This document shows positions 51,764 to 64,000 of a DNA stretch of 64,000 nt, piece by piece. The stretch's first letter is position 1. The number at the start of each line of letters is the position of its first letter. The stretch comes from Spirochaeta thermophila DSM 6578. Lineage in GTDB: Bacteria; Spirochaetota; Spirochaetia; Winmispirales; Winmispiraceae. The position numbers and the translations under genes are program-made. A model generated the notes under the pieces. The model saw only the letters and a program-made list of their open reading frames with translations. It searched no databases and was not told where the DNA came from. The DNA is taken from NCBI RefSeq assembly GCF_000184345.1, contig NC_017583.1, forward strand, positions 744,001 to 808,000, given 5' to 3'.

Positions 51764-53434
51764 CTTTCAGTATCCTCTAGCGGATCGTGGGGACTGCAAC
51801 ATATAACCCCCCAAAGGGGTTCTTGGCGCTCATAGCTTTCAGTATCCTCTAGCGGATCGTGGGGACTGCAACCGATGAAGTGGTGGATAGGCTGTTGGAA
51901 TTGTATGATCTTTCAGTATCCTCTAGCGGATCGTGGGGACTGCAACATGCTTCCTCTGCATGAGATACCGCATCTTTTTTCCAGCTTTCAGTATCCTCTA
52001 GCGGATCGTGGGGACTGCAACTCTGTATAATCATATCAATACAACCCTCGAGAAATACTTTCAGTATCCTCTAGCGGATCGTGGGGACTGCAACTCTAAT
52101 AGCGATTACGACTCGCGCGGGGTCTTAATAAGCTTTCAGTATCCTCTAGCGGATCGTGGGGACTGCAACTCACATTGTGTTTCCTCGGAGATGACAGTCT
52201 GCTCATCCTTTCAGTATCCTCTAGCGGATCGTGGGGACTGCAACAGTGCACGTACAAGGTGAGGATTTTGGCGATTTAAACTTTCAGTATCCTCTAGCGG
52301 ATCGTGGGGACTGCAACCACAGTACGCGTTGATAATGCAGATCTTATATTTGTCTTTCAGTATCCTCTAGCGGATCGTGGGGACTGCAACTCCCCCTGGC
52401 CCTGGCGGTTTGTCTTGCCGACATGCCCACTTTCAGTATCCTCTAGCGGATCGTGGGGACTGCAACCATGCCTTGGTGATGTGGTGCGTGTGTCGCGGAT
52501 GGTCCTTTCAGTATCCTCTAGCGGATCGTGGGGACTGCAACCCCAACGAGTCCCACCCAGGTGGCATGCTACCCATGTCCTTTCAGTATCCTCTAGCGGA
52601 TCGTGGGGACTGCAACGCAATATACCGAGCGCTCGAACACAAACCAACTCCAGCTTTCAGTATCCTCTAGCGGATCGTGGGGACTGCAACTAAAAGCTGT
52701 GATGCCAACAGATACATCATTCGTACTTTCAGTATCCTCTAGCGGATCGTGGGGACTGCAACCTGGCTGATAAGCAGCTCGATAAATGCAATAGTAACGC
52801 TTTCAGTATCCTCTAGCGGATCGTGGGGACTGCAACCTCTACGACGATAGCTGATGTCAGCGCTGCCATCGCCCTTTCAGTATCCTCTAGCGGATCGTGG
52901 GGACTGCAACTTGGAGGATTAATTACAGGTGCAGCCGGCACTATTGCCTTTCAGTATCCTCTAGCGGATCGTGGGGACTGCAACTCAGATCCCACAGAAA
53001 CATAATACTCTCCTCCTGTACCTTTCAGTATCCTCTAGCGGATCGTGGGGACTGCAACGGCCACGCCCCCGTGAGACGTAGCCCTCTGAGTGATGTACTT
53101 TCAGTATCCTCTAGCGGATCGTGGGGACTGCAACTTATAGTAAGGTTGTATATGGTATGGTGCCTCATCGGCTTTCAGTATCCTCTAGCGGATCGTGGGG
53201 ACTGCAACATATCGCATTGTGCCTTTTCAGACACCACCATCTGCTCTTTCAGTATCCTCTAGCGGATCGTGGGGACTGCAACACCCCCAGTCGTCTGCGG
53301 CTGCGCCAAACGCTCCAGGCTTTCAGTATCCTCTAGCGGATCGTGGGGACTGCAACTCCGATATGATCCGCCGCGTATCGATGCGCCTATCAAGAATCTT
53401 TCAGTATCCTCTAGCGGATCGTGGGGACTGCAAC
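51764..53434 (+). CRISPR. CRISPR array 1: 23 repeats of 37 bp, 22 spacers
   Basis: By my count there are 23 repeats of 37 bp that look identical. The repeat begins CTTTCAGTATCCTCTAGCGG and ends ATCGTGGGGACTGCAAC. Spacers are 35-41 bp, mostly 37-38. The repeat end ACTGCAAC suits an 8-nt crRNA 5' handle, and the promoter-bearing leader on the left sets the transcription direction to plus. The last repeat is intact, with no degenerate end. The repeat can fold with CAGT (positions 5-8) pairing to ACTG (30-33). Translated frames across the array are artefacts of the repeat. Confidence 0.98.
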
Positions 53435-54693: not shown

Positions 54694-54858
54694 GTGCAAC
54701 GTGAAGGAAAAACATATAGTTGTTGTGAGATCTCTTATATGCTTTGTCTCTTGTTTAAAGAAGGAAAAATAGAATTTGCCTTCAATATTTGCATAAATTG
54801 CAACTCAGATGATGTAATATTGAGAATATGGGACCGAAGTATTGTGAAATACTTGTAG
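54694..54858 (+). CDS. Possible 54-aa cysteine-containing leader protein of the cas operon
   Basis: A GTG at 54694 lies 10 nt after GGAGG and directly downstream of the cas promoter. It opens a 54-codon frame reading MQREGKTYSCCEISYMLCLL and on to a pair of Cys (NICINC), ending 30 bp inside cas3'. The cas3' ATG itself has no ribosome-binding site, so translation of this frame could couple to it. I recognise no family and cannot exclude chance or a longer, frameshifted cas3' N terminus. Confidence 0.35.
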   Translation: MQREGKTYSCCEISYMLCLLFKEGKIEFAFNICINCNSDDVILRIWDRSIVKYL

Positions 54859-57587
54859 TGAATACACCTCCCTCGCTTTCCAAAGGTAAAGAAATACCAA
54901 GTTCGTATAAAGAACTGTTTTGTAGGTATTTTAATAGAAAGGATATCCTTCCCTTTGAGCATCAGGCTAGAGTTTTTTCTGAAATTCAAAACGATCGAGA
55001 GGTATTTCTGGTGGCTGGTACTGCGGCTGGCAAAACCCTCGCAGTTGCAATACCTCTATTCCAGAAAGTGATTTCTAAGCAAATACAAAAAGTACTGCTT
55101 CTCTATCCCACCGTTGCATTACTTGAGGATCAGCGGAAGGTTCTGATGCGACTCTCCGAGATTATTAAAGAAAACCAAAAAGAAACCACAATTGAGATTG
55201 GAGAATTGAAAGGAGGACTTACTCAAAAGGAATTACTTGAAGCACTTACTAAAGATATTATTCTTGCTACACCAGATGAAATCTACTGGTTCTTTCGAAA
55301 GAATGTGAAGTATAATTCCTTATTGATTTATGGTCTCTCTTTAGTAGATGAGTTTGTACTGGATGAAGCACACCTTTTTAATGGTTTGATGCTGGAAAAC
55401 TTTAAACATTTGTGGAGACGTATCAAAAGCCTAGCGGGAATATTGGGTAAGACACCACGTCTGCACATCCTTACGGCTACTCCTACAGCAGCATTGCAGG
55501 GATTGAATAATGGTATCCGCGTCGTTGGTCGTTCCAAATGCCAGGATGTAACTGTGGAAATCCGCCCCAGCGGACCTTTTGGCCGCGCCGTTGCAATGGT
55601 AGATGCTCTTAACGAGAGTTTGGAACAGGGGCGAAAGAAGATTTTAGTTGTATGCAACTCGGCCCGAAGAGCCCACCAGCTCTTTGAAAAGTACAAACGA
55701 AAGGCTAGTGGTCTGCCCGTCAAATACCAACTTCGATTTGGTAAGGTCCAGTTGGGAAATCTGTTGAAATGGTTAGAAAATTCCGGCGTTGAGCAGACTC
55801 TCTTGGATAATCTGCGGGCTGGATTCTACCAGGAGGAGGAAATAACTCTCAGCGAAGTGGCACCAGACACCTCCGTTAAACTACCGGTCGAAAAAATTAT
55901 TGAGAGTGTGACGGATATTCTGGAGCGTCAATGCTGGTACATCAAGCGGATCTTGTGGGAACAGAAACAGAAACCTGGCGAAACCTGGGAATCTTTGCTT
56001 CACAATCGGCGTCTTCCCTGTACCATTATCGGGTTTATTCGTAACCGTCTAATGGAGGCTAATCTGGACCAACAGCAGGTGTTGATTGATGAGTGGTTGG
56101 CAGACACCTTACGAAACTTGGAAGATATTTCCGAGGATGAGGTAATCACAACCTCTCCGAATTTTCGAGAATTAGCAAAGGTGCTAGAAAACGCCGGATT
56201 GGACAGCACCCTGGCTGATTTGCTGGTAAACCGTCTCGTACACCAACTTAAAGTTGACCCAGGCGAGACAGACTTGGAAAGCATAGATATAAACGACCGC
56301 CCGATTTATTTGCGCTGGTTGGATTGGATGGTTGAGAAATCCCAAGTGGATCACATTCGTACGCTGGTACAAACAGGGCTGGAATCAGGCGCACTGAAAG
56401 CCGACTGCCGCCACATTGGAGTGTGGAAGGAAACAGATGTGCCGGTTATCGTTTATTCCGGCAGTATGGCAAAAAGGGCTCGTGAGGGGTTGATTGAAGC
56501 GTTTGCCGATCTGGAGCGTGCTGTGTTGATTTCTACCTCGGCAGTGGAGGTAGGGGTAGATTTTGCTGCTGACACACTGATTACCGAAGAGTGTGAAGGC
56601 AACAGTTTCCTTCAACGCTTTGGACGAGTGGGACGACACGGCAATGATAGCCGGGTGATTGTACTGGTGAGTGGTGATGTGGCTGCGGAGTGGCAAGACT
56701 TGAACGGTCAAAAGATGAGTCGGGAAGAGTTTTCTCAGAAAATACTGGCTACATTCCCTACCCGTTCCTATGCCGAGGCTTCACCCCTGGTGGATGCTGC
56801 TCATTACCTGGTCAACGAACAACTCGGACGCATTGGCATGCGTCTCAATCAAGACCCGGCCCTTGTGGCTGCGCAATCACTGGCCGATAAACTGCGAGCA
56901 GCCGAGATTCCGATTGGCTTTGGACTCCGCAGTACAATGCCCCAAATCACTCTTCGGGATGGGGTAGGCAAGGACCCCTTTTATGTGCTTCGCTATGTGG
57001 ATGACGATGACCTACGTCCAGCGAATTCTCCCTTTGAAGTAGCTCAGGCCAACAAGTGGTTCACCGAATTGCTCTTCCAGTCTGCTCGCTTTAGGGTGAT
57101 GGTAGATCTGAAAGCCACCCTTCGGACCAGCCGGGTATGGTTCTGGTTGGCGAATGGGGAATGGCAATTGCGGGTGCAGACGGGTGTTGGTTCTCACTAT
57201 ATTGCGAGGATGAAAAAGTATTTCCCTCAACAGAGAACGTGGGATCCCTTCCAGCCAGGCAATTTCCTGCTCCTGCACGGCGACGTATATCTGCAGAGGG
57301 CCGAAAAGGATATAACCTACCCTAAGCCTGACCCGGTATGCGACGACCAGCAAGACCCGTTGTGCATCCCGGCCCAGAACTACCTTGTATTCATTGGATG
57401 GGATGACGTAGAAAAGGCGCAAGAGTTGCTCACTGGCTCGCCCATCTCCCGGTGGGAAGAACTGTATTACGATTGGGATGGGGTCGAATTCAATAACTCA
57501 TTAGTAGTGCTGGAGCAAACGGCGGGCGCTTGTTTTGCCGCTTACGAGGAGTGGTTGAAGTATGTTAATCAGAGAGTTCAAAAGTAA
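54828..57587 (+). CDS. cas3: Cas3' helicase, type I-D-like
   Basis: A 919-aa superfamily 2 helicase. Walker A GTAAGKT near residue 65, DEAH near 177, TATPT near 215 and the motif VI segment RFGRVGRHG near 597 are visible. No HD nuclease is fused at either end, as expected for the type I-D Cas3', which unwinds target DNA recruited by the Cas10d complex. The first ~200 codons are AT-richer than the middle. No Shine-Dalgarno precedes the ATG. The last 26 bp overlap the HD gene, so translation is coupled. Confidence 0.85.
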   Translation: MGPKYCEILVVNTPPSLSKGKEIPSSYKELFCRYFNRKDILPFEHQARVFSEIQNDREVFLVAGTAAGKTLAVAIPLFQKVISKQIQKVLLLYPTVALLEDQRKVLMRLSEIIKENQKETTIEIGELKGGLTQKELLEALTKDIILATPDEIYWFFRKNVKYNSLLIYGLSLVDEFVLDEAHLFNGLMLENFKHLWRRIKSLAGILGKTPRLHILTATPTAALQGLNNGIRVVGRSKCQDVTVEIRPSGPFGRAVAMVDALNESLEQGRKKILVVCNSARRAHQLFEKYKRKASGLPVKYQLRFGKVQLGNLLKWLENSGVEQTLLDNLRAGFYQEEEITLSEVAPDTSVKLPVEKIIESVTDILERQCWYIKRILWEQKQKPGETWESLLHNRRLPCTIIGFIRNRLMEANLDQQQVLIDEWLADTLRNLEDISEDEVITTSPNFRELAKVLENAGLDSTLADLLVNRLVHQLKVDPGETDLESIDINDRPIYLRWLDWMVEKSQVDHIRTLVQTGLESGALKADCRHIGVWKETDVPVIVYSGSMAKRAREGLIEAFADLERAVLISTSAVEVGVDFAADTLITEECEGNSFLQRFGRVGRHGNDSRVIVLVSGDVAAEWQDLNGQKMSREEFSQKILATFPTRSYAEASPLVDAAHYLVNEQLGRIGMRLNQDPALVAAQSLADKLRAAEIPIGFGLRSTMPQITLRDGVGKDPFYVLRYVDDDDLRPANSPFEVAQANKWFTELLFQSARFRVMVDLKATLRTSRVWFWLANGEWQLRVQTGVGSHYIARMKKYFPQQRTWDPFQPGNFLLLHGDVYLQRAEKDITYPKPDPVCDDQQDPLCIPAQNYLVFIGWDDVEKAQELLTGSPISRWEELYYDWDGVEFNNSLVVLEQTAGACFAAYEEWLKYVNQRVQK

Positions 57588-58332
57588 GCTAGGGAAATCT
57601 TCAAAAGGTGGACAAACGCTATACGAGCACGTAATGGATTGCACCAAGATTGCCTATACAATTCTTACAGACGGCCGTTTTATGCCGACTGATTATCCCA
57701 AACAGAAACGGGACCAGCTTTTCTTCAGCGTCTTTATGCATGATCTGGGCAAACTCAATCCGGACTTTCAAAAAATGTTGGAGGCTGCCCGCAGTGGGAA
57801 GCCCTTACCTACCAAACGGGTCAAGCACGAAGCCAGCACATTGGAATTGGAAGTCCTGCTGCGTGAGAATGTGGATGATGTTTGTCAACACCTCGAGAAT
57901 GAGTTTGGTTATCAGTTTTCCGGCTCAATAGATAACCTTGATGACACTCTGGCTTTTGCCGTGACACATCACGGGCTGTTTTATCTGTCTTTTGAACAAC
58001 GAGGAAATAACGTGGTACCGCGTGTCCGGCGGGAATGGACAGTTTTTAACTATGGTGAACAGCGACGAATCACCCTGACTGACCTGCTATTTGACTATCA
58101 TCCGCTGGGCGGCCTGGTCATTATCAGTGACTTGTTGGGTTCTTTTAGCTATGAGCAGGGCATTGCGGATGTTGATAGTTTACTGAACCAGGCAGGTTCT
58201 CTACGGGAGTTGATAGATGGGATTTTAGAGGGTGGTGTGGTAGAAGCAGTAGAAAAAAGCATTCGAGCATACGATCCGCGTACGTACGGTTTACGAAATC
58301 TATTAGCTCTGTTAGGAGGAGGTTTGAACTGA
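57562..58332 (+). CDS. Separate HD nuclease (Cas3''-like)
   Basis: A 256-aa HD-domain protein with the full metal-ligand series of Cas3'' nucleases: His in LYEHVMD (about residue 23), HD in FMHDLGKLNPDF (about 59-60), His in VKHEAS (about 93), tandem His in VTHHGLFY (about 136-137) and Asp in IISDLLGS (about 190). In classical type I-D this domain is the N terminus of Cas10d; here it is its own gene between cas3' and the Cas10d-like gene, overlapping both (26 bp and 1 bp). It would cut target DNA. Confidence 0.85.
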   Translation: MLIREFKSKLGKSSKGGQTLYEHVMDCTKIAYTILTDGRFMPTDYPKQKRDQLFFSVFMHDLGKLNPDFQKMLEAARSGKPLPTKRVKHEASTLELEVLLRENVDDVCQHLENEFGYQFSGSIDNLDDTLAFAVTHHGLFYLSFEQRGNNVVPRVRREWTVFNYGEQRRITLTDLLFDYHPLGGLVIISDLLGSFSYEQGIADVDSLLNQAGSLRELIDGILEGGVVEAVEKSIRAYDPRTYGLRNLLALLGGGLN

Positions 58333-60692
58333 TGGAAAGTGCTGAAGAAATCATTCAACAGCAAGCAGAAGAGGCCTTGCAGCAACTAAATGCTCAAGGG
58401 GCTGTTCTCCCTGCGGAGATTGCCGATAGCATTCTCCACCAGGTTGTCTACTGGGAAAAACCTTTGGCTGGTGGTGACAAACTGCTGTTTGTCCGTCTGC
58501 TTTCACCGGTAGTAATGCGTGAGGAGGTCTTCCTGGGCAACATTTTGTTCAACGATTTTTTAAGTAAGGCTTTTGTCCGAGCTGTAAAACAAGTTGGTGG
58601 TCAGGCTGCACTTGTGGCCAATGATCTGGAAAACTATTACTTTCTTGTACGCACCAGCACCGACTTACGCAAGTTAGTAGATGGATTCCGCTCTGAGGTG
58701 GAGAACAGCCTGCCGGAGTTGTTTTTTGGTGAGCCTGATCCCTCGAGAGGAATCTACGGCTCGGTCGAGACGATGCTCGACTTCAACAAAGCGAACGTGG
58801 AACCATTTCCGGTATTTATAATGCCGGAAGAGTACAAAGCACGTCTGGAGAAAGCGGTGAGGGAGTCCCTCTTGCGTAAGATTGAGAACAGTTCTATGGA
58901 GCGGAATCCAACCTCGATTATGGCTAATCTGGCCTTCTTCTACTGCCATGATGGTACGGAAATGCAAAGCCCTCCGAGATTCTTGGCGCTCCTTGCTTAT
59001 AAGTATTTCCCTAAATATGCCACAAAGTTGGAAGAAGCACTCAACATTGTCCCTTTGGCAAAGGATGAGGCAGCTAATGTTTTGCCAGATGAGTTGGTGG
59101 AAGAACCATCTAGACACAAGAAAATTCTGGAAATGTTGGATTACATAGACTCAACCTTCTCGAGTCCTGGACAGTTTGGGTGGCTGAAAATATTTTTTGC
59201 CAAAACTGACAAAGGCAAGTGGGCATTGGACGTAGGTAAATCTTCGGATCAAAAGCCAGTGGCTCGCTTGCTAAGAAAAATGTCGCAAATGAGTAGCAAG
59301 GAAATTTGGGAAGAGGTGCTAAAAAACTCAACCGCATACTGTTTGTCAAATATCGGTATGTGTTCTCCCACTGCTCTTAAGGATTTATTGAATGCTTTGG
59401 TAAAGAAACTGGGGGAGCGTGTGGATTCTGATCCGAATAATTGGTTGATGCCCTATATCTCGGATAAATTCCTTTCTACAGATACACGCACCTTATCAGA
59501 AAAGTTGTTAATTCCCGTCCAGGCTGGCTATTTCACATTCGCATCTTCCTCTCGCCAACTCGCATCGATAAGTTGTCGAATATGTGGGATGCAAATTCCA
59601 GAAGCTGAAGACAAAAGCATTTTGATGGGGCAACACACGCACAAATTTCACAATCAATCAAGTAAGCAGAAAGGGGTGGAAGGTCCCAAGGCTTGCCTGC
59701 GTTGTGCTATCTTTACCTACCTGATGGTAAAGCTGCTGGGGTCAGAAGCGGTTGGTCAACCCCAAGTTCCTAAAACATATAACCTCATTTTCCACTACGG
59801 CAAACACACCGACGATAAAATATCGGCATTGGCTGACCAGATAGACAAGGTATGGGACCTGGTAAGCAAGCACCGTCAGGGATCCTTTAAGATAAGCGAA
59901 ATTAGAGAAGAAATCACCAAACTGAATGCCAAGATTGAGAAAGCGCGGAGCAAGAAAGAGCGAACGGAACTGGAAACAGAAGTGGCTCAAAAACAGGCTG
60001 CCTTAGAGCAAGCACAAACTGTTGTGGCCCAGGTAGAAGATGACATCTTTGCTACCTGTCCCTGGATGCGCGATGGAGGCGAATCCCCTGCACCCCCGGA
60101 GAATCCGGCTTTAGATGTGCTCAGCAATCTTTCGCTTTCCAAAAGCAAAGTGGAACGCCACGTCTTGGGTCTGGGAATGGGTGGCTACCGGATGATACTC
60201 TTTGTCTTGCCTCAAATCCGCAAACCAAAAGATGCCAAGGAGCACGACTATTCCCAAAGTCGCTTTTCTAACAGTTGGCTCACGATCAGTGCTTTCCTAT
60301 CGTTTCTGAATCACCTGTGCGGTTGTAATGGACCGTTCTATTACCAGTCTTTACCCACCTTGACTCCCGAAGCGTTCCAGCCGGGTACTTTCTACATTCG
60401 CAACCGAGCCATCCGGGCTGAGGAAGTACAGCGCAGGTACGCCGCTGTCTACAATCTGGCCTGGCAGTTGGTTCCACAACGTGGCTCCAAGGGATTTGTC
60501 AAGAAAGTAATACTGGCCGAGAAACTGTTGGCCGACCCGTTAGGCACCTTCTCCGCTGTGATGCGAGACAGTACCATCTTTGGACAAAAGAAAGGAGGTT
60601 ACAAATGGTTAAAGACTGAATACCGTCAAGACTGGGCTTCGTGGGATTTCACCGAGTATGTCCGATTCATACAACAGCTTGCTGAACTGTAG
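58332..60692 (+). CDS. Cas10d (Csc3)-like large subunit lacking the HD domain
   Basis: A 786-aa protein. A zinc-finger-like CRICGM (about residue 414) and CLRC (about 455) sit in the middle, a predicted coiled coil follows (about 515-575, EIREEITKLNAKIEKA), and the C-terminal part contains VERHVLGLGMGGYRMILFVL and YNLAWQLVPQRGSKGF. No GGDD cyclase motif is present, consistent with the inactive palm of Cas10d. With the separate 256-aa HD protein the sum of about 1040 aa matches a fused Cas10d. The start overlaps the HD stop by one base. Assignment rests on context with csc2 and csc1 and general features. Confidence 0.75.
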   Translation: MESAEEIIQQQAEEALQQLNAQGAVLPAEIADSILHQVVYWEKPLAGGDKLLFVRLLSPVVMREEVFLGNILFNDFLSKAFVRAVKQVGGQAALVANDLENYYFLVRTSTDLRKLVDGFRSEVENSLPELFFGEPDPSRGIYGSVETMLDFNKANVEPFPVFIMPEEYKARLEKAVRESLLRKIENSSMERNPTSIMANLAFFYCHDGTEMQSPPRFLALLAYKYFPKYATKLEEALNIVPLAKDEAANVLPDELVEEPSRHKKILEMLDYIDSTFSSPGQFGWLKIFFAKTDKGKWALDVGKSSDQKPVARLLRKMSQMSSKEIWEEVLKNSTAYCLSNIGMCSPTALKDLLNALVKKLGERVDSDPNNWLMPYISDKFLSTDTRTLSEKLLIPVQAGYFTFASSSRQLASISCRICGMQIPEAEDKSILMGQHTHKFHNQSSKQKGVEGPKACLRCAIFTYLMVKLLGSEAVGQPQVPKTYNLIFHYGKHTDDKISALADQIDKVWDLVSKHRQGSFKISEIREEITKLNAKIEKARSKKERTELETEVAQKQAALEQAQTVVAQVEDDIFATCPWMRDGGESPAPPENPALDVLSNLSLSKSKVERHVLGLGMGGYRMILFVLPQIRKPKDAKEHDYSQSRFSNSWLTISAFLSFLNHLCGCNGPFYYQSLPTLTPEAFQPGTFYIRNRAIRAEEVQRRYAAVYNLAWQLVPQRGSKGFVKKVILAEKLLADPLGTFSAVMRDSTIFGQKKGGYKWLKTEYRQDWASWDFTEYVRFIQQLAEL

Positions 60693-60704: not shown

Positions 60705-61412
60705 ATGGCTGTACAAATAGAGCGTGGATTGGCAGATGAATTTTGTCCTCGCCTGTTTCGGGTGCTGGACGAACTGGGCTTGCTCCCACGGCAGTTGAGG
60801 GCAAAGCCCACGGAGTTTGAAAAGTACCCCCGGCTACTCTTCGGCAGTATCCAGCGTTATAACGACGTAGACGCAGGCTTCCGCGAATGGGAAAGCCGGA
60901 TCTTGCGTGTCGCCGAATTTCGCAGAGAAGAGCGCTACCCAGACCTGGAAGAACTGCGTCGCTGGATGAACGATCAGGCGGACTTTTTCACCAATAAAGC
61001 GAATATGCAACATCTCAGAACAAGTCTCTTGTCTCGTGTCTTCCAGTATCTCTACCCGCGGCGGGTTCTGGCAAACGCCTTTTGCCAGCAATACAAGGGT
61101 AATAAGGAGGCGATTGCAAAATTCCAAGCTGTCACCAGCGCCAAAGATGCCTCAGAACGGGAGGCGAGACGACAGGACTTGGAAGAATGGTTTCGTGAAA
61201 ACCTGCCGTCCAGCATTGAGGCAAGCGTTCAAAAATTGAAAGAACTGTACAACGATGATGAATGGCAAGTCATTGCTGACGATGCCTGCAAATCGTTGTC
61301 AACCAATGTTCATTACTACTTGAAAGTGTTGACCGGCAAAGAGCCTCTCGAGGCCGAGCCGGAGCCAGAAGAACTCGAAGAAGAATTTATGGAGGAGGAT
61401 ACCAATGACTGA
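60705..61412 (+). CDS. Unrecognised helical Cas-operon protein, possible stand-alone small subunit
   Basis: A 235-aa protein, predicted almost entirely alpha-helical by its pattern, rich in Arg, Glu, Leu, with an acidic tail (EPEPEELEEEFMEED). No motif I recognise. AGGAGGAAAG lies 5-8 nt before the ATG, so it is well translated; it begins 12 bp after the Cas10d-like stop and overlaps csc2 by 8 bp. Canonical type I-D operons have no gene here, and their small subunit Cas11d is made from an internal start in cas10d. A separately encoded Cas11-like subunit is the simplest hypothesis; an accessory or C-terminal Cas10d fragment is the alternative. Confidence 0.8.
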   Translation: MAVQIERGLADEFCPRLFRVLDELGLLPRQLRAKPTEFEKYPRLLFGSIQRYNDVDAGFREWESRILRVAEFRREERYPDLEELRRWMNDQADFFTNKANMQHLRTSLLSRVFQYLYPRRVLANAFCQQYKGNKEAIAKFQAVTSAKDASEREARRQDLEEWFRENLPSSIEASVQKLKELYNDDEWQVIADDACKSLSTNVHYYLKVLTGKEPLEAEPEPEELEEEFMEEDTND

Positions 61413-62379
61413 GCAAACCAAACTTGACCAATTCACCAACCAACTTGCCGCTGTTGCTACACTGGTTCCCCGCGACCACAAAAAAGTAGGCAAAATCGCC
61501 CAGGCCATTTACACCCGTCAAGTTGTGACTATTGTGGGTGTGAAAACGACCACATCTCGCTTCCTACCCGTGTCCCACGAGGGCTATTCCAACGAGACCT
61601 ATGTGGACAAGGTGGAGCTTTGGGGCAAAACCCGCGCCGAATTTATTGCCCGCAAACTGAAGGGCGTCGAGCGTAGGGCGCATATGGCCTTGTTCCGCGA
61701 AAAGGTAGAAACTTACCTGAGAAACAACGGCGGAGGACAGCAGGGTTGGCAAACGTTTTTCGAGGAAAAGTTTGGCAAAGCCTGCACCATTCCTGACAGC
61801 CTCTGTGTGGCCTGTTGGAACTGTTCCCTCTTTGGTGGGATGGAAGCAGGCAAAGGAGCCACGTTCTCGCGTATCCGCTACTTTGACACTTTCTCGGTCG
61901 AGGATGCTGCTGAGTGCATCCAGAGCGACGACTCTCCAGAAGGGATGGCTATCGGCAACACGGTGGGCGAAGACCTGAGCGTCGAGCGCAGCGAGGCCTC
62001 ATTTCATCGCTATGAGTACGTGAAGGCCGAGACACGCTTCCCCTTCATCACCATTATCGAAAGTCCCACTCTGTTGGATGTGGCCGGCTATCTGGCTGCG
62101 GTCAAACTGGCCGATCAGCACGGCTATGGCAAGTACTCGGCCAACCACGGCAAGTTTAAAACAGAGTTTCTGGCCGTCTCTACCGGCTACCCGCTCTTCT
62201 CGGTTCTGGATTTGCTCACCTGGCTGGAAAATGGAGAACTAACCAACCCAAAGGAGAAATTACACTTTGAGACAGCCGTGAACAATCCGGTGACTCTCTT
62301 CGGCGAAGAGATTGATGAGATTCGGAGCAAATTGGATGGTCAATTCCGGGCGTATATGGAAGCCTTGACCAAACAATAA
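61405..62379 (+). CDS. csc2: Csc2 (Cas7d) crRNA-binding backbone protein
   Basis: A 324-aa protein with the look of type I-D Cas7/Csc2. It has an N-terminal VVTIVGVKTTTSRFLPVSHEG, a short Cys cluster SLCVACWNCSLFGGM likely to bind zinc, and a Gly-rich GKYSANHGKFKTEF near the C terminus. Cas7 subunits polymerise along the spacer part of the crRNA to form the backbone of the effector complex. It overlaps the preceding gene by 8 bp. Confidence 0.85.
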   Translation: MTEQTKLDQFTNQLAAVATLVPRDHKKVGKIAQAIYTRQVVTIVGVKTTTSRFLPVSHEGYSNETYVDKVELWGKTRAEFIARKLKGVERRAHMALFREKVETYLRNNGGGQQGWQTFFEEKFGKACTIPDSLCVACWNCSLFGGMEAGKGATFSRIRYFDTFSVEDAAECIQSDDSPEGMAIGNTVGEDLSVERSEASFHRYEYVKAETRFPFITIIESPTLLDVAGYLAAVKLADQHGYGKYSANHGKFKTEFLAVSTGYPLFSVLDLLTWLENGELTNPKEKLHFETAVNNPVTLFGEEIDEIRSKLDGQFRAYMEALTKQ

Positions 62380-62435: not shown

Positions 62436-63227
62436 ATGAAAACTCTGTATGCACGAGCCATCTGGTTGCGTAACTGCGGTCGCTTTACCCACATCAGTTC
62501 AGACTTTGGCTCGCAGTACCACACGCATACTTTTGTCACATCCGAGGCACTCTACGCCAGTCTGACCCGTGGAGTAACCTGGCGTCACCAGGGGCGATTT
62601 GTAGACCTGGAAACCGATGCAAAAAAGTCTACCAGCCCGGATTACTTTCTCTGGGACTATGATATCACCCAGAAGCCTATATGGTTTACACCCGGAGTAT
62701 TTGTAGACGAGTGCATGAGACAACTTGCAAAACAAGATAAAATTGCTGATACTCATGATTTTAACGTGATTTCAGAAGGTTATCCCAGTACAAGTAGTAC
62801 TCCTTTAGGAAGCCCTCGGGATTTTTGGGTGCCCACATTTGGAAAAATAGAGACAATATTACCTGGATATACTCTAGTAGCATATGGCTTCTCTTATTCG
62901 TTAGGGGAACTGAACATGTTTAGTAGAAATCAGATTTTCCTTTTAGGGAAAAAAAGAACGATGTTTCAGATCACAGAACTATCTGATGTAATAGAGGGAA
63001 GTCACAAGAAAGGCTACTGTGATACAGAGTGGTGGATAGAAGTTCCCCCGGTTTTTGGTGATAAGTTTCAACGTTTTGAAGTATTAGGAGCAACTATGCG
63101 ATATCTTATTTTGCGGGGCATGACAAAAGATAGTTTAGACTATGTGGAGTTCAACTTCTCTGACGGGAGAACAATTCGTTTGCCTTACTTTTATCTCAAA
63201 ACAGTTCCTTTGAATGACAGAGCGTAG
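62436..63227 (+). CDS. csc1: Csc1 (Cas5d)-like protein
   Basis: A 263-aa protein in the position and size of type I-D Cas5/Csc1, starting with the short strand KTLYARAIWLRNCGRF typical of RAMP folds. Cas5 binds the crRNA 5' handle and caps the complex. GAGGTGG precedes the ATG; a 56-bp gap separates it from csc2. From about 62700 to its end the DNA is clearly AT-richer than its first third, suggesting a recombination breakpoint inside the gene. It ends 44 bp before array 2. Confidence 0.75.
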   Translation: MKTLYARAIWLRNCGRFTHISSDFGSQYHTHTFVTSEALYASLTRGVTWRHQGRFVDLETDAKKSTSPDYFLWDYDITQKPIWFTPGVFVDECMRQLAKQDKIADTHDFNVISEGYPSTSSTPLGSPRDFWVPTFGKIETILPGYTLVAYGFSYSLGELNMFSRNQIFLLGKKRTMFQITELSDVIEGSHKKGYCDTEWWIEVPPVFGDKFQRFEVLGATMRYLILRGMTKDSLDYVEFNFSDGRTIRLPYFYLKTVPLNDRA

Positions 63228-63271: not shown

Positions 63272-64000
63272 CTTTCAGTATCCTCTAGCGGATCGTGGGG
63301 GCTGCAACGATACCAGACGTGCAGGGTGTATGCGTATAACCATCTACCTTTCAGTATCCTCTAGCGGATCGTGGGGGCTGCAACTAATGCGGCGTTAAAG
63401 TCGGTATTGATGCCGTTCTATCTCTTTCAGTATCCTCTAGCGGATCGTGGGGGCTGCAACGTCGTGTCGATGGGGCGGTTATCGTGCCCACGGGAACTTT
63501 CAGTATCCTCTAGCGGATCGTGGGGGCTGCAACTATTCTCATATATCAAACAGTCAATAAAGAAATTCTTCTTTCAGTATCCTCTAGCGGATCGTGGGGG
63601 CTGCAACGACATACCGCGACGATATCAGACTGTACAGGCCGTATCTTTCAGTATCCTCTAGCGGATCGTGGGGGCTGCAACTATTCATCACTTCGACCCA
63701 TCCTTCGCCCGGATGTGTCTTTCAGTATCCTCTAGCGGATCGTGGGGGCTGCAACCTGACGATGACATCGCAGTGGTCTATTACGACGACGACTTTCAGT
63801 ATCCTCTAGCGGATCGTGGGGGCTGCAACAGCTCGATATAAGCCTCGCTATTGCTCAGGCCGCAAAGGCCTTTCAGTATCCTCTAGCGGATCGTGGGGGC
63901 TGCAACAGGCGCTTGGCGTGTACAGCTGCACAGTGTCCATGTCACTTTCAGTATCCTCTAGCGGATCGTGGGGGCTGCAACCAAAAGCAGGCAAAAGCAG
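63272..64000 (+). CRISPR. CRISPR array 2: at least 10 repeats, runs off the window
   Basis: Ten repeats of the same 37-bp sequence in the same orientation as array 1, each with G instead of A at position 30 (GGGGGCTGCAAC). Nine complete spacers of 36-40 bp and the start of a tenth are visible. Only 44 bp separate the csc1 stop from the first repeat and no promoter-like leader is seen there. No degenerate repeat is visible. Confidence 0.97.

What the first reader, a model, noticed from the sequence alone, without database searches (positions are those of the whole stretch)
57562..60692. HD nuclease split from Cas10d
In classical type I-D the HD nuclease is the N-terminal domain of Cas10d. Here a complete HD protein with all expected metal ligands is a separate gene, overlapping cas3' by 26 bp and the Cas10d-like gene by 1 bp. 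This puts helicase, nuclease and large subunit on three chains, so recruitment of the nuclease must be by protein contact.
Basis: partly seen in the sequence, partly recalled or inferred. Interest (0 to 1): 0.6.

Follow-up and report, generated by a model that had tools for sequence, protein, structure and literature searches.

The report
I-D-like CRISPR with stand-alone HD nuclease
This bacterium carries a rare CRISPR immune system in which the DNA-cutting nuclease is a separate protein, not fused to the large targeting subunit as in its textbook relatives; the same arrangement recurs in bacteria and archaea, so it is a stable design and not a broken gene.

Summary
A 256-aa HD protein (57562-58332) overlaps cas3' by 26 bp and the next gene by 1 bp, has its own ribosome-binding site, and keeps every Cas3-type metal ligand. 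It is not a recent frameshift. Seven further full operons (Bacillota, Methanotrichales-type archaea) keep cas3', HD, large subunit (LS), small subunit (SS), csc2 and csc1 as separate genes, and their trees agree. No fused relative was found.

"Split from Cas10d" is not supported. The HD profile is closer to Cas3 HD domains than to Cas10d HD domains in every comparison, though the HD tree cannot decide. The LS is called Cas10d only by a PADLOC model trained on this family; I found no independent similarity to classical Cas10d. Cas7 is truly Csc2. The small subunit is also a separate gene, so HD, LS and SS lie as three genes in the order that classical Cas10d has as domains.

In two Methanothrix/Methanosaeta MAGs a type III-C module directly follows HD; in one it is seen to end at the LS gene. 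Cas3'-HD is therefore held more tightly than HD-LS.

Best reading: an I-D-related Cascade using an I-A-like, three-chain Cas3'/Cas3''/LS nuclease module. PADLOC has models of it; I found no paper describing it.

The parts
51764..53434 (-). CRISPR array 1: 23 repeats, all CTTTCAGTATCCTCTAGCGGATCGTGGGGACTGCAAC, 22 unique spacers of 35-41 nt; leader-like flank on its right side, so transcription presumably leftward (inferred)
54828..57587 (+). cas3' helicase, 919 aa, no HD domain
   Evidence: ORF; DEAD 6e-22 and Cas3-like_C 1e-12; type I-D Cas3' TIGR03158 1e-18, just under its cut-off; PDLC01533 1608 bits
57546..57551 (+). GAGGAG, likely ribosome-binding site of the HD gene, inside cas3'
57562..58332 (+). 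stand-alone HD nuclease (Cas3''-type), 256 aa
   Evidence: ORF; PF18019 4e-9; PDLC01254 2.5e-13; orthologues in nine other genomes, eight of them full length
57628..58131 (+). span of the metal-ligand codons: H23 (57628-57630), H60-D61 (57739-57744), H89 (57826-57828), H136-H137 (57967-57972), D190 (58129-58131)
   Evidence: invariant columns in nine HD proteins
58314..58322 (+). AGGAGGAGG, likely ribosome-binding site of the large-subunit gene, inside the HD gene; stop/start overlap TGATG at 58330-58334
58332..60692 (+). large subunit (LS, 'Cas10_Id' in PADLOC), 786 aa, without HD domain; conserved zinc-finger cysteines C415, C418, C455, C458
   Evidence: PDLC01506 2.5e-147; alignment
60705..61412 (+). 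separate small subunit (Cas11d model), 235 aa
   Evidence: PDLC01499 1e-103; orthologues in all full operons
61405..62379 (+). cas7 (Csc2 family)
   Evidence: TIGR03157 7e-11, over cut-off; all eight members match
62436..63227 (+). cas5 (Csc1/Cas5d)
   Evidence: PDLC01497 3e-138 and independent Cas5d model PDLC02040 1.6e-5
63272..64000 (-). CRISPR array 2, start only; it runs on past the window to position 65617 in window numbering: 32 repeats, 31 unique spacers; cas4, cas2, cas1 and cas6 lie beyond it on the minus strand

Best explanation
This is a complete CRISPR-Cas effector operon related to subtype I-D in which the HD nuclease is, throughout its lineage, a stand-alone Cas3''-type subunit. 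Expected mechanism: a Cascade of Csc2-type Cas7, Cas5, the large subunit and separate Cas11 copies finds target DNA; Cas3' and the HD protein dock on it as a pair, as in type I-A; HD nicks the displaced strand and Cas3' feeds DNA to it. Shown here: gene order, separate open frames, intact ligands, conservation and joint inheritance. Inferred: the complex, the docking contacts and the cleavage. The name 'split from Cas10d' is not warranted; the HD looks like a Cas3'' that goes with Cas3'.
For: Six-gene order kept in the window and in seven further full operons (L024, L028, L043-L046, and L026 joined to L041). Congruent trees for Cas3', HD, LS and Cas5. Invariant ligands. Own ribosome-binding sites, with overlaps that recur in relatives. 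HD closer to Cas3 HDs than to Cas10d HDs by HMM, profile-profile comparison and PADLOC. III-C module directly after HD in two archaeal MAGs, with Cas3'-HD still joined. Arrays, cas1, cas2, cas4 and cas6 present. I-A precedent: Cas3' and Cas3'' are separate proteins, and I-A, I-D and I-G carry Cas3 within the surveillance complex (PMC11127173).
Against: No biochemistry. The HD tree cannot reject a clade of split HD plus Cas10d HD (AU p 0.505). The structure models do not help: HD pLDDT 72, best PDB match T. fusca Cas3 and related Cascade entries but at E 0.4; LS pLDDT 48. Gene order matches the domain order of fused Cas10d, which also suits an old fission.
Confidence: 0.72

Rival explanations
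1. The HD gene arose by an ancient fission of a classical fused Cas10d. HD, LS and Cas11 became three genes in place, keeping the order.
For: The order cas3'-HD-LS-SS-csc2-csc1 equals the order cas3'-[HD-core-Cas11d]-csc2-csc1 of Synechocystis (Cas11d inside cas10d per PMC10212523). The tree does not reject a common HD clade. Weak HD match to Cas10d model PDLC01192, 4e-6.
Against: HD nearer to Cas3 HDs in all equal-size profile comparisons. LS and SS have no detectable similarity to classical Cas10d. No fused relative found.
Confidence: 0.2
2. The unfused state is ancestral: classical Cas10d arose by fusion of a neighbouring cas3'', a large-subunit gene and cas11, and this lineage keeps the pre-fusion arrangement.
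For: Three adjacent genes co-linear with the domains of Cas10d. Makarova 2011 left open that I-D's HD was fused from a stand-alone HD (PMC3150331). Spread over three phyla.
Against: No rooted tree; LS is not shown to be homologous to Cas10d. The order alone does not tell fusion from fission.
Confidence: 0.3
3. Recent frameshift, pseudogene or sequencing error in a fused Cas10d gene.
For: Only the 1-bp overlap of HD and LS frames.
Against: Same boundaries, aligned C-termini of HD and N-termini of LS in the full operons at HD identities down to 30%; own ribosome-binding sites.
Confidence: 0.01
4. The HD protein has an accessory role and the nuclease of interference lies elsewhere.
For: No activity data; III-C modules of the same operon family carry their own Cas10c with an HD.
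Against: No other nuclease in the window's operon; complete ligand set; always next to cas3'.
Confidence: 0.07

Closest known systems
CRISPR-Cas subtype I-D (Synechocystis pSYSA, L023)
   Same: Separate Cas3' helicase; Csc2-family Cas7; Cas5d/Csc1; non-permuted HD; gene order after splitting Cas10d into its domains
   Different: HD and Cas11 are separate genes; the large subunit is not detectably similar in sequence
CRISPR-Cas subtype I-A
   Same: Cas3' and Cas3'' on two chains and a separate small subunit; a Csa1-type Cas4 in L024, L028, L043-L045
   Different: Cas7 is Csc2 and not Csa2; no Cas8a match; HD matches the I-A Cas3'' model only at 0.0066-0.012
PADLOC-DB models PDLC01533, PDLC01506, PDLC01499, PDLC01497
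   Same: Cas3, Cas10_Id, Cas11d and Cas5d models that match this family at full length; these loci are already catalogued, the last three under I-D
   Different: No family-specific model for the stand-alone HD matched; no description of the three-chain layout found in the open papers searched
Type III-C (Csx11/Cas10c, Cmr) module
   Same: Sits in the same operon in Methanothrix/Methanosaeta MAGs L025 and L041
   Different: A distinct effector; absent from the window's operon

Membership tests
Subtype I-D (canonical) | HD nuclease fused to the N-terminus of Cas10d | tested here: not met
   HD is a separate ORF in all loci of the family that reach its ends
Subtype I-D (canonical) | Cas7 of the Csc2 family | tested here: met
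   TIGR03157 7e-11 over cut-off; 8 of 8 members match
Subtype I-D (canonical) | Cas5 of the Csc1/Cas5d family | tested here: inconclusive
   Family-specific model 8/8; independent Cas5d model only 1/8, 1.6e-5; hhalign with classical Csc1 1%
Subtype I-D (canonical) | Cas10-like large subunit | tested here: inconclusive
   Only PDLC01506; hhalign with classical Cas10d 7%, Zn-finger region
Subtype I-D (canonical) | Small subunit Cas11d translated from inside cas10d | tested here: not met
   Separate gene 60705-61412, conserved
Subtype I-D (canonical) | Separate Cas3' helicase without HD | tested here: met
Subtype I-A | Cas3' and Cas3'' encoded separately | tested here: met
Subtype I-A | Cas8a large subunit and Csa2-type Cas7 | tested here: not met
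   No Cas8a match to LS; Cas7 is Csc2
Cas3'' HD nuclease | Non-permuted ligand order H...HD...H...HH...D | tested here: met
   H23, H60-D61, H89, H136-H137, D190 invariant
Cas3'' HD nuclease | Metal-dependent DNA cleavage | not testable with these tools
   needs protein
Type III Cas10 HD | Circularly permuted HD fused to a cyclase palm | tested here: not met
   Non-permuted and unfused

The most novel reading that the evidence does not exclude
The lineage preserves the state before Cas10d was fused: HD, core and Cas11 as three adjacent genes in domain order. In Methanothrix-type archaea one Cas3'-HD pair would further serve both an I-D-like and a type III-C effector inserted between HD and the large subunit.
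Probability: 0.2. Interest if true: 0.72.

Novelty: new variant of a known kind. Interest (0 to 1): 0.5.

Why it matters
[quoted passage not shown] A conserved lineage with Csc2 but with HD, large subunit and Cas11 as separate genes makes the fusion-or-fission question directly testable. It also gives a three-chain effector in which nuclease, helicase and recognition can be removed one at a time, and it warns that 'I-D' in current annotation libraries covers two different architectures.

Tried and rejected
Single-protein scans of genome contigs and viral contigs for LS and Cas3' found no relatives, nor did plasmid searches with LS, HD or Csc2. Plasmid hits of Cas3' that I inspected were unrelated DEAD helicases. 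A Cas3' alignment whose second row was artificial, with only the helicase motifs kept so as to steer pattern choice, found the first five relatives; every relative was then confirmed by blastp of its neighbouring genes against the window's operon. Structure of LS: pLDDT 48, PDB matches meaningless. Structure of HD: pLDDT 72, best matches T. fusca Cas3/Cascade entries but not significant. The HD tree was expected to settle the origin and did not. I thought the two arrays shared a spacer; they do not. Pseudogene and frameshift readings rejected.

Full report
WHAT IS THERE. The window is positions 744001-808000 of a single-contig genome of 2,560,222 bases. Size and content suggest Spirochaeta (Winmispira) thermophila; that name is from memory and was not tested. 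Between two CRISPR arrays with almost the same repeat lies an operon on the plus strand: cas3' (54828-57587), HD (57562-58332), large subunit LS (58332-60692), small subunit SS (60705-61412), cas7 (61405-62379) and cas5 (62436-63227). HD and LS each have a strong ribosome-binding site upstream, so the natural reading is coupled translation of separate proteins. The arrays have 23 and 32 repeats and 53 unique spacers of 35-42 nt. Beyond the second array, on the minus strand, lie cas4, cas2, cas1 and cas6. The system has all the genes expected of a working one.

THE HD PROTEIN. It matches Cas3 HD families (PF18019 4e-9; TIGR01596 8e-9, below that model's cut-off). Its ligand order is the non-permuted Cas3 type: H23, H60-D61, H89, H136-H137, D190, all invariant in nine homologues.

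RELATIVES. Scans with whole single proteins found nothing. An alignment that forced the search on to helicase motifs found five relatives: a Bacillota MAG (L024), Methanothrix and Methanosaeta MAGs (L025, L026, L027) and an uncultured archaeon (L028). A profile of their HD proteins then found four more in the phylum of L024 (L043-L046). The family is rare: 5 of 348 sampled genomes of that phylum, 4 of 238 in the class of L025 plus one weak match in a 789-aa protein that I take for an ordinary Cas3, 1 of 296 sampled in the window's own phylum, with no significant match by the LS model in the one other genome of its genus (the second match there, 2.6e-4, was not pursued). Every locus that reaches that far shows the same order: cas3', HD, LS, SS, cas7, cas5, usually with cas6 upstream and cas1-cas2-cas4 downstream or divergent. 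HD is always its own frame. C-termini of HD and N-termini of LS align across loci. Trees of Cas3', HD, LS and Cas5 share the same groupings. The split is therefore old and stable.

IS IT SPLIT FROM CAS10D? The name implies that HD was once part of Cas10d. I tested this four ways. First, a profile of the nine split HDs scores most Cas3 HD domains above all eight classical Cas10d HD domains. Second, profile against profile, the Cas10d HD set scores 41.6 while twelve random equal-sized sets of Cas3 HDs score 44 to 85. Third, all nine members match Cas3 models of PADLOC, with better best E-values than any Cas10d model. Fourth, an HD tree puts the split HDs in one clade (100/100), away from the Cas10d clade, but the AU test does not reject putting the two together (p 0.505). 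Similarity thus favours a Cas3''-type HD, and the tree is undecided. Cas10d HDs are long-branched, so lower similarity alone is not proof.

IS THE LARGE SUBUNIT A CAS10D? Only one line says so: PADLOC model PDLC01506, which is filed under I-D and evidently built on this family. Pfam, NCBIfam and PDB sequence searches with eight members find nothing meaningful. Against eight classical Cas10d proteins hhalign gives 7% probability, over a zinc-finger stretch. The AlphaFold model is too poor to use (pLDDT 48). What ties the operon to I-D is Cas7: Csc2, over the curated cut-off in the window protein and matched by all eight members.

A CO-LINEAR DECONSTRUCTION. Synechocystis has cas3', cas10d, csc2, csc1, and its Cas10d is HD, then core, then Cas11d translated from an internal start (PMC10212523). 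The window has cas3', HD, LS, SS, csc2, csc1. Gene order here equals domain order there. That suits fusion of neighbours or fission of one gene equally well. Makarova and colleagues in 2011 left open that the I-D HD was fused from a stand-alone form (PMC3150331).

THE III-C MODULE AT THE JUNCTION. In Methanosaeta PtaB.Bin018 (L026 joined to L041; the contig break lies inside HD) a type III-C module (Cmr1, Cmr6, Cas10c/Csx11, Cmr4, a Cmr5-sized protein, Cmr3) and two small genes sit exactly between HD and LS. A second, independent MAG (L025) has the same HD-to-Cmr1 junction; its contig ends before an LS could be seen. The archaeon L028 has no insert. So the pair Cas3'-HD stays together while the HD-LS link can be opened by about 8 kb. 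This is the clearest sign that HD belongs with Cas3'.

MECHANISM. By analogy with type I-A, where helicase and HD are separate proteins, and with the statement that I-A, I-D and I-G carry Cas3 inside the surveillance complex (PMC11127173), I expect Cas3' and HD to dock as a pair on the LS end of the Cascade and to cut after R-loop formation. Genes, order, ligands and conservation are shown; complex and cutting are inferred.

NOVELTY. The locus type is in PADLOC-DB, so it is not unseen. The papers I could search describe I-D as HD fused to Cas10d (PMC10212523, PMC7694759, PMC5965380); the last also says in passing that I-D encodes HD as a separate gene. The 2025 classification (PMC12669027, main text only) does not mention this layout in the passages that name I-D or Cas10d. 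Subscription papers, supplements and preprints could not be searched. I rate it a new variant of a known kind.

Noticed in passing
L041:375-8676 and L025:5852-13145: Type III-C module (Cmr1, Cmr6, Cas10c, Cmr4, Cmr5-like, Cmr3) directly follows HD in two independent Methanothrix/Methanosaeta MAGs; in L041 it is seen to lie between HD and LS.
   Followed up: partly
L027:7399-7740: After the HD gene, at the same junction, a second and different HD-containing protein begins; the contig ends there.
   Followed up: no
window:54828-63227: The operon has 48% G+C against 63% for positions 1-50000, while cas1, cas2, cas4 and cas6 beyond the window have 60-68%: the effector operon looks acquired next to a resident adaptation module.
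   Followed up: partly
window:51764-53434 and 63272-65617 (beyond the window end): The two arrays differ by one fixed base in every repeat (GGGGA against GGGGG) and share a 60-bp, 97% identical element at the same distance from the last repeat; no spacer is shared.
   Followed up: yes
L012:8076-9517 (genome 416075-417516): A second cas1 next to a short frame that resembles the start of a Cas3: perhaps the remains of another CRISPR system in the same genome.
   Followed up: no
window:53528-54619: A phosphotriesterase-family gene (PF02126, 2e-51) sits between array 1 and cas3'; not searched for in the relatives.
   Followed up: no
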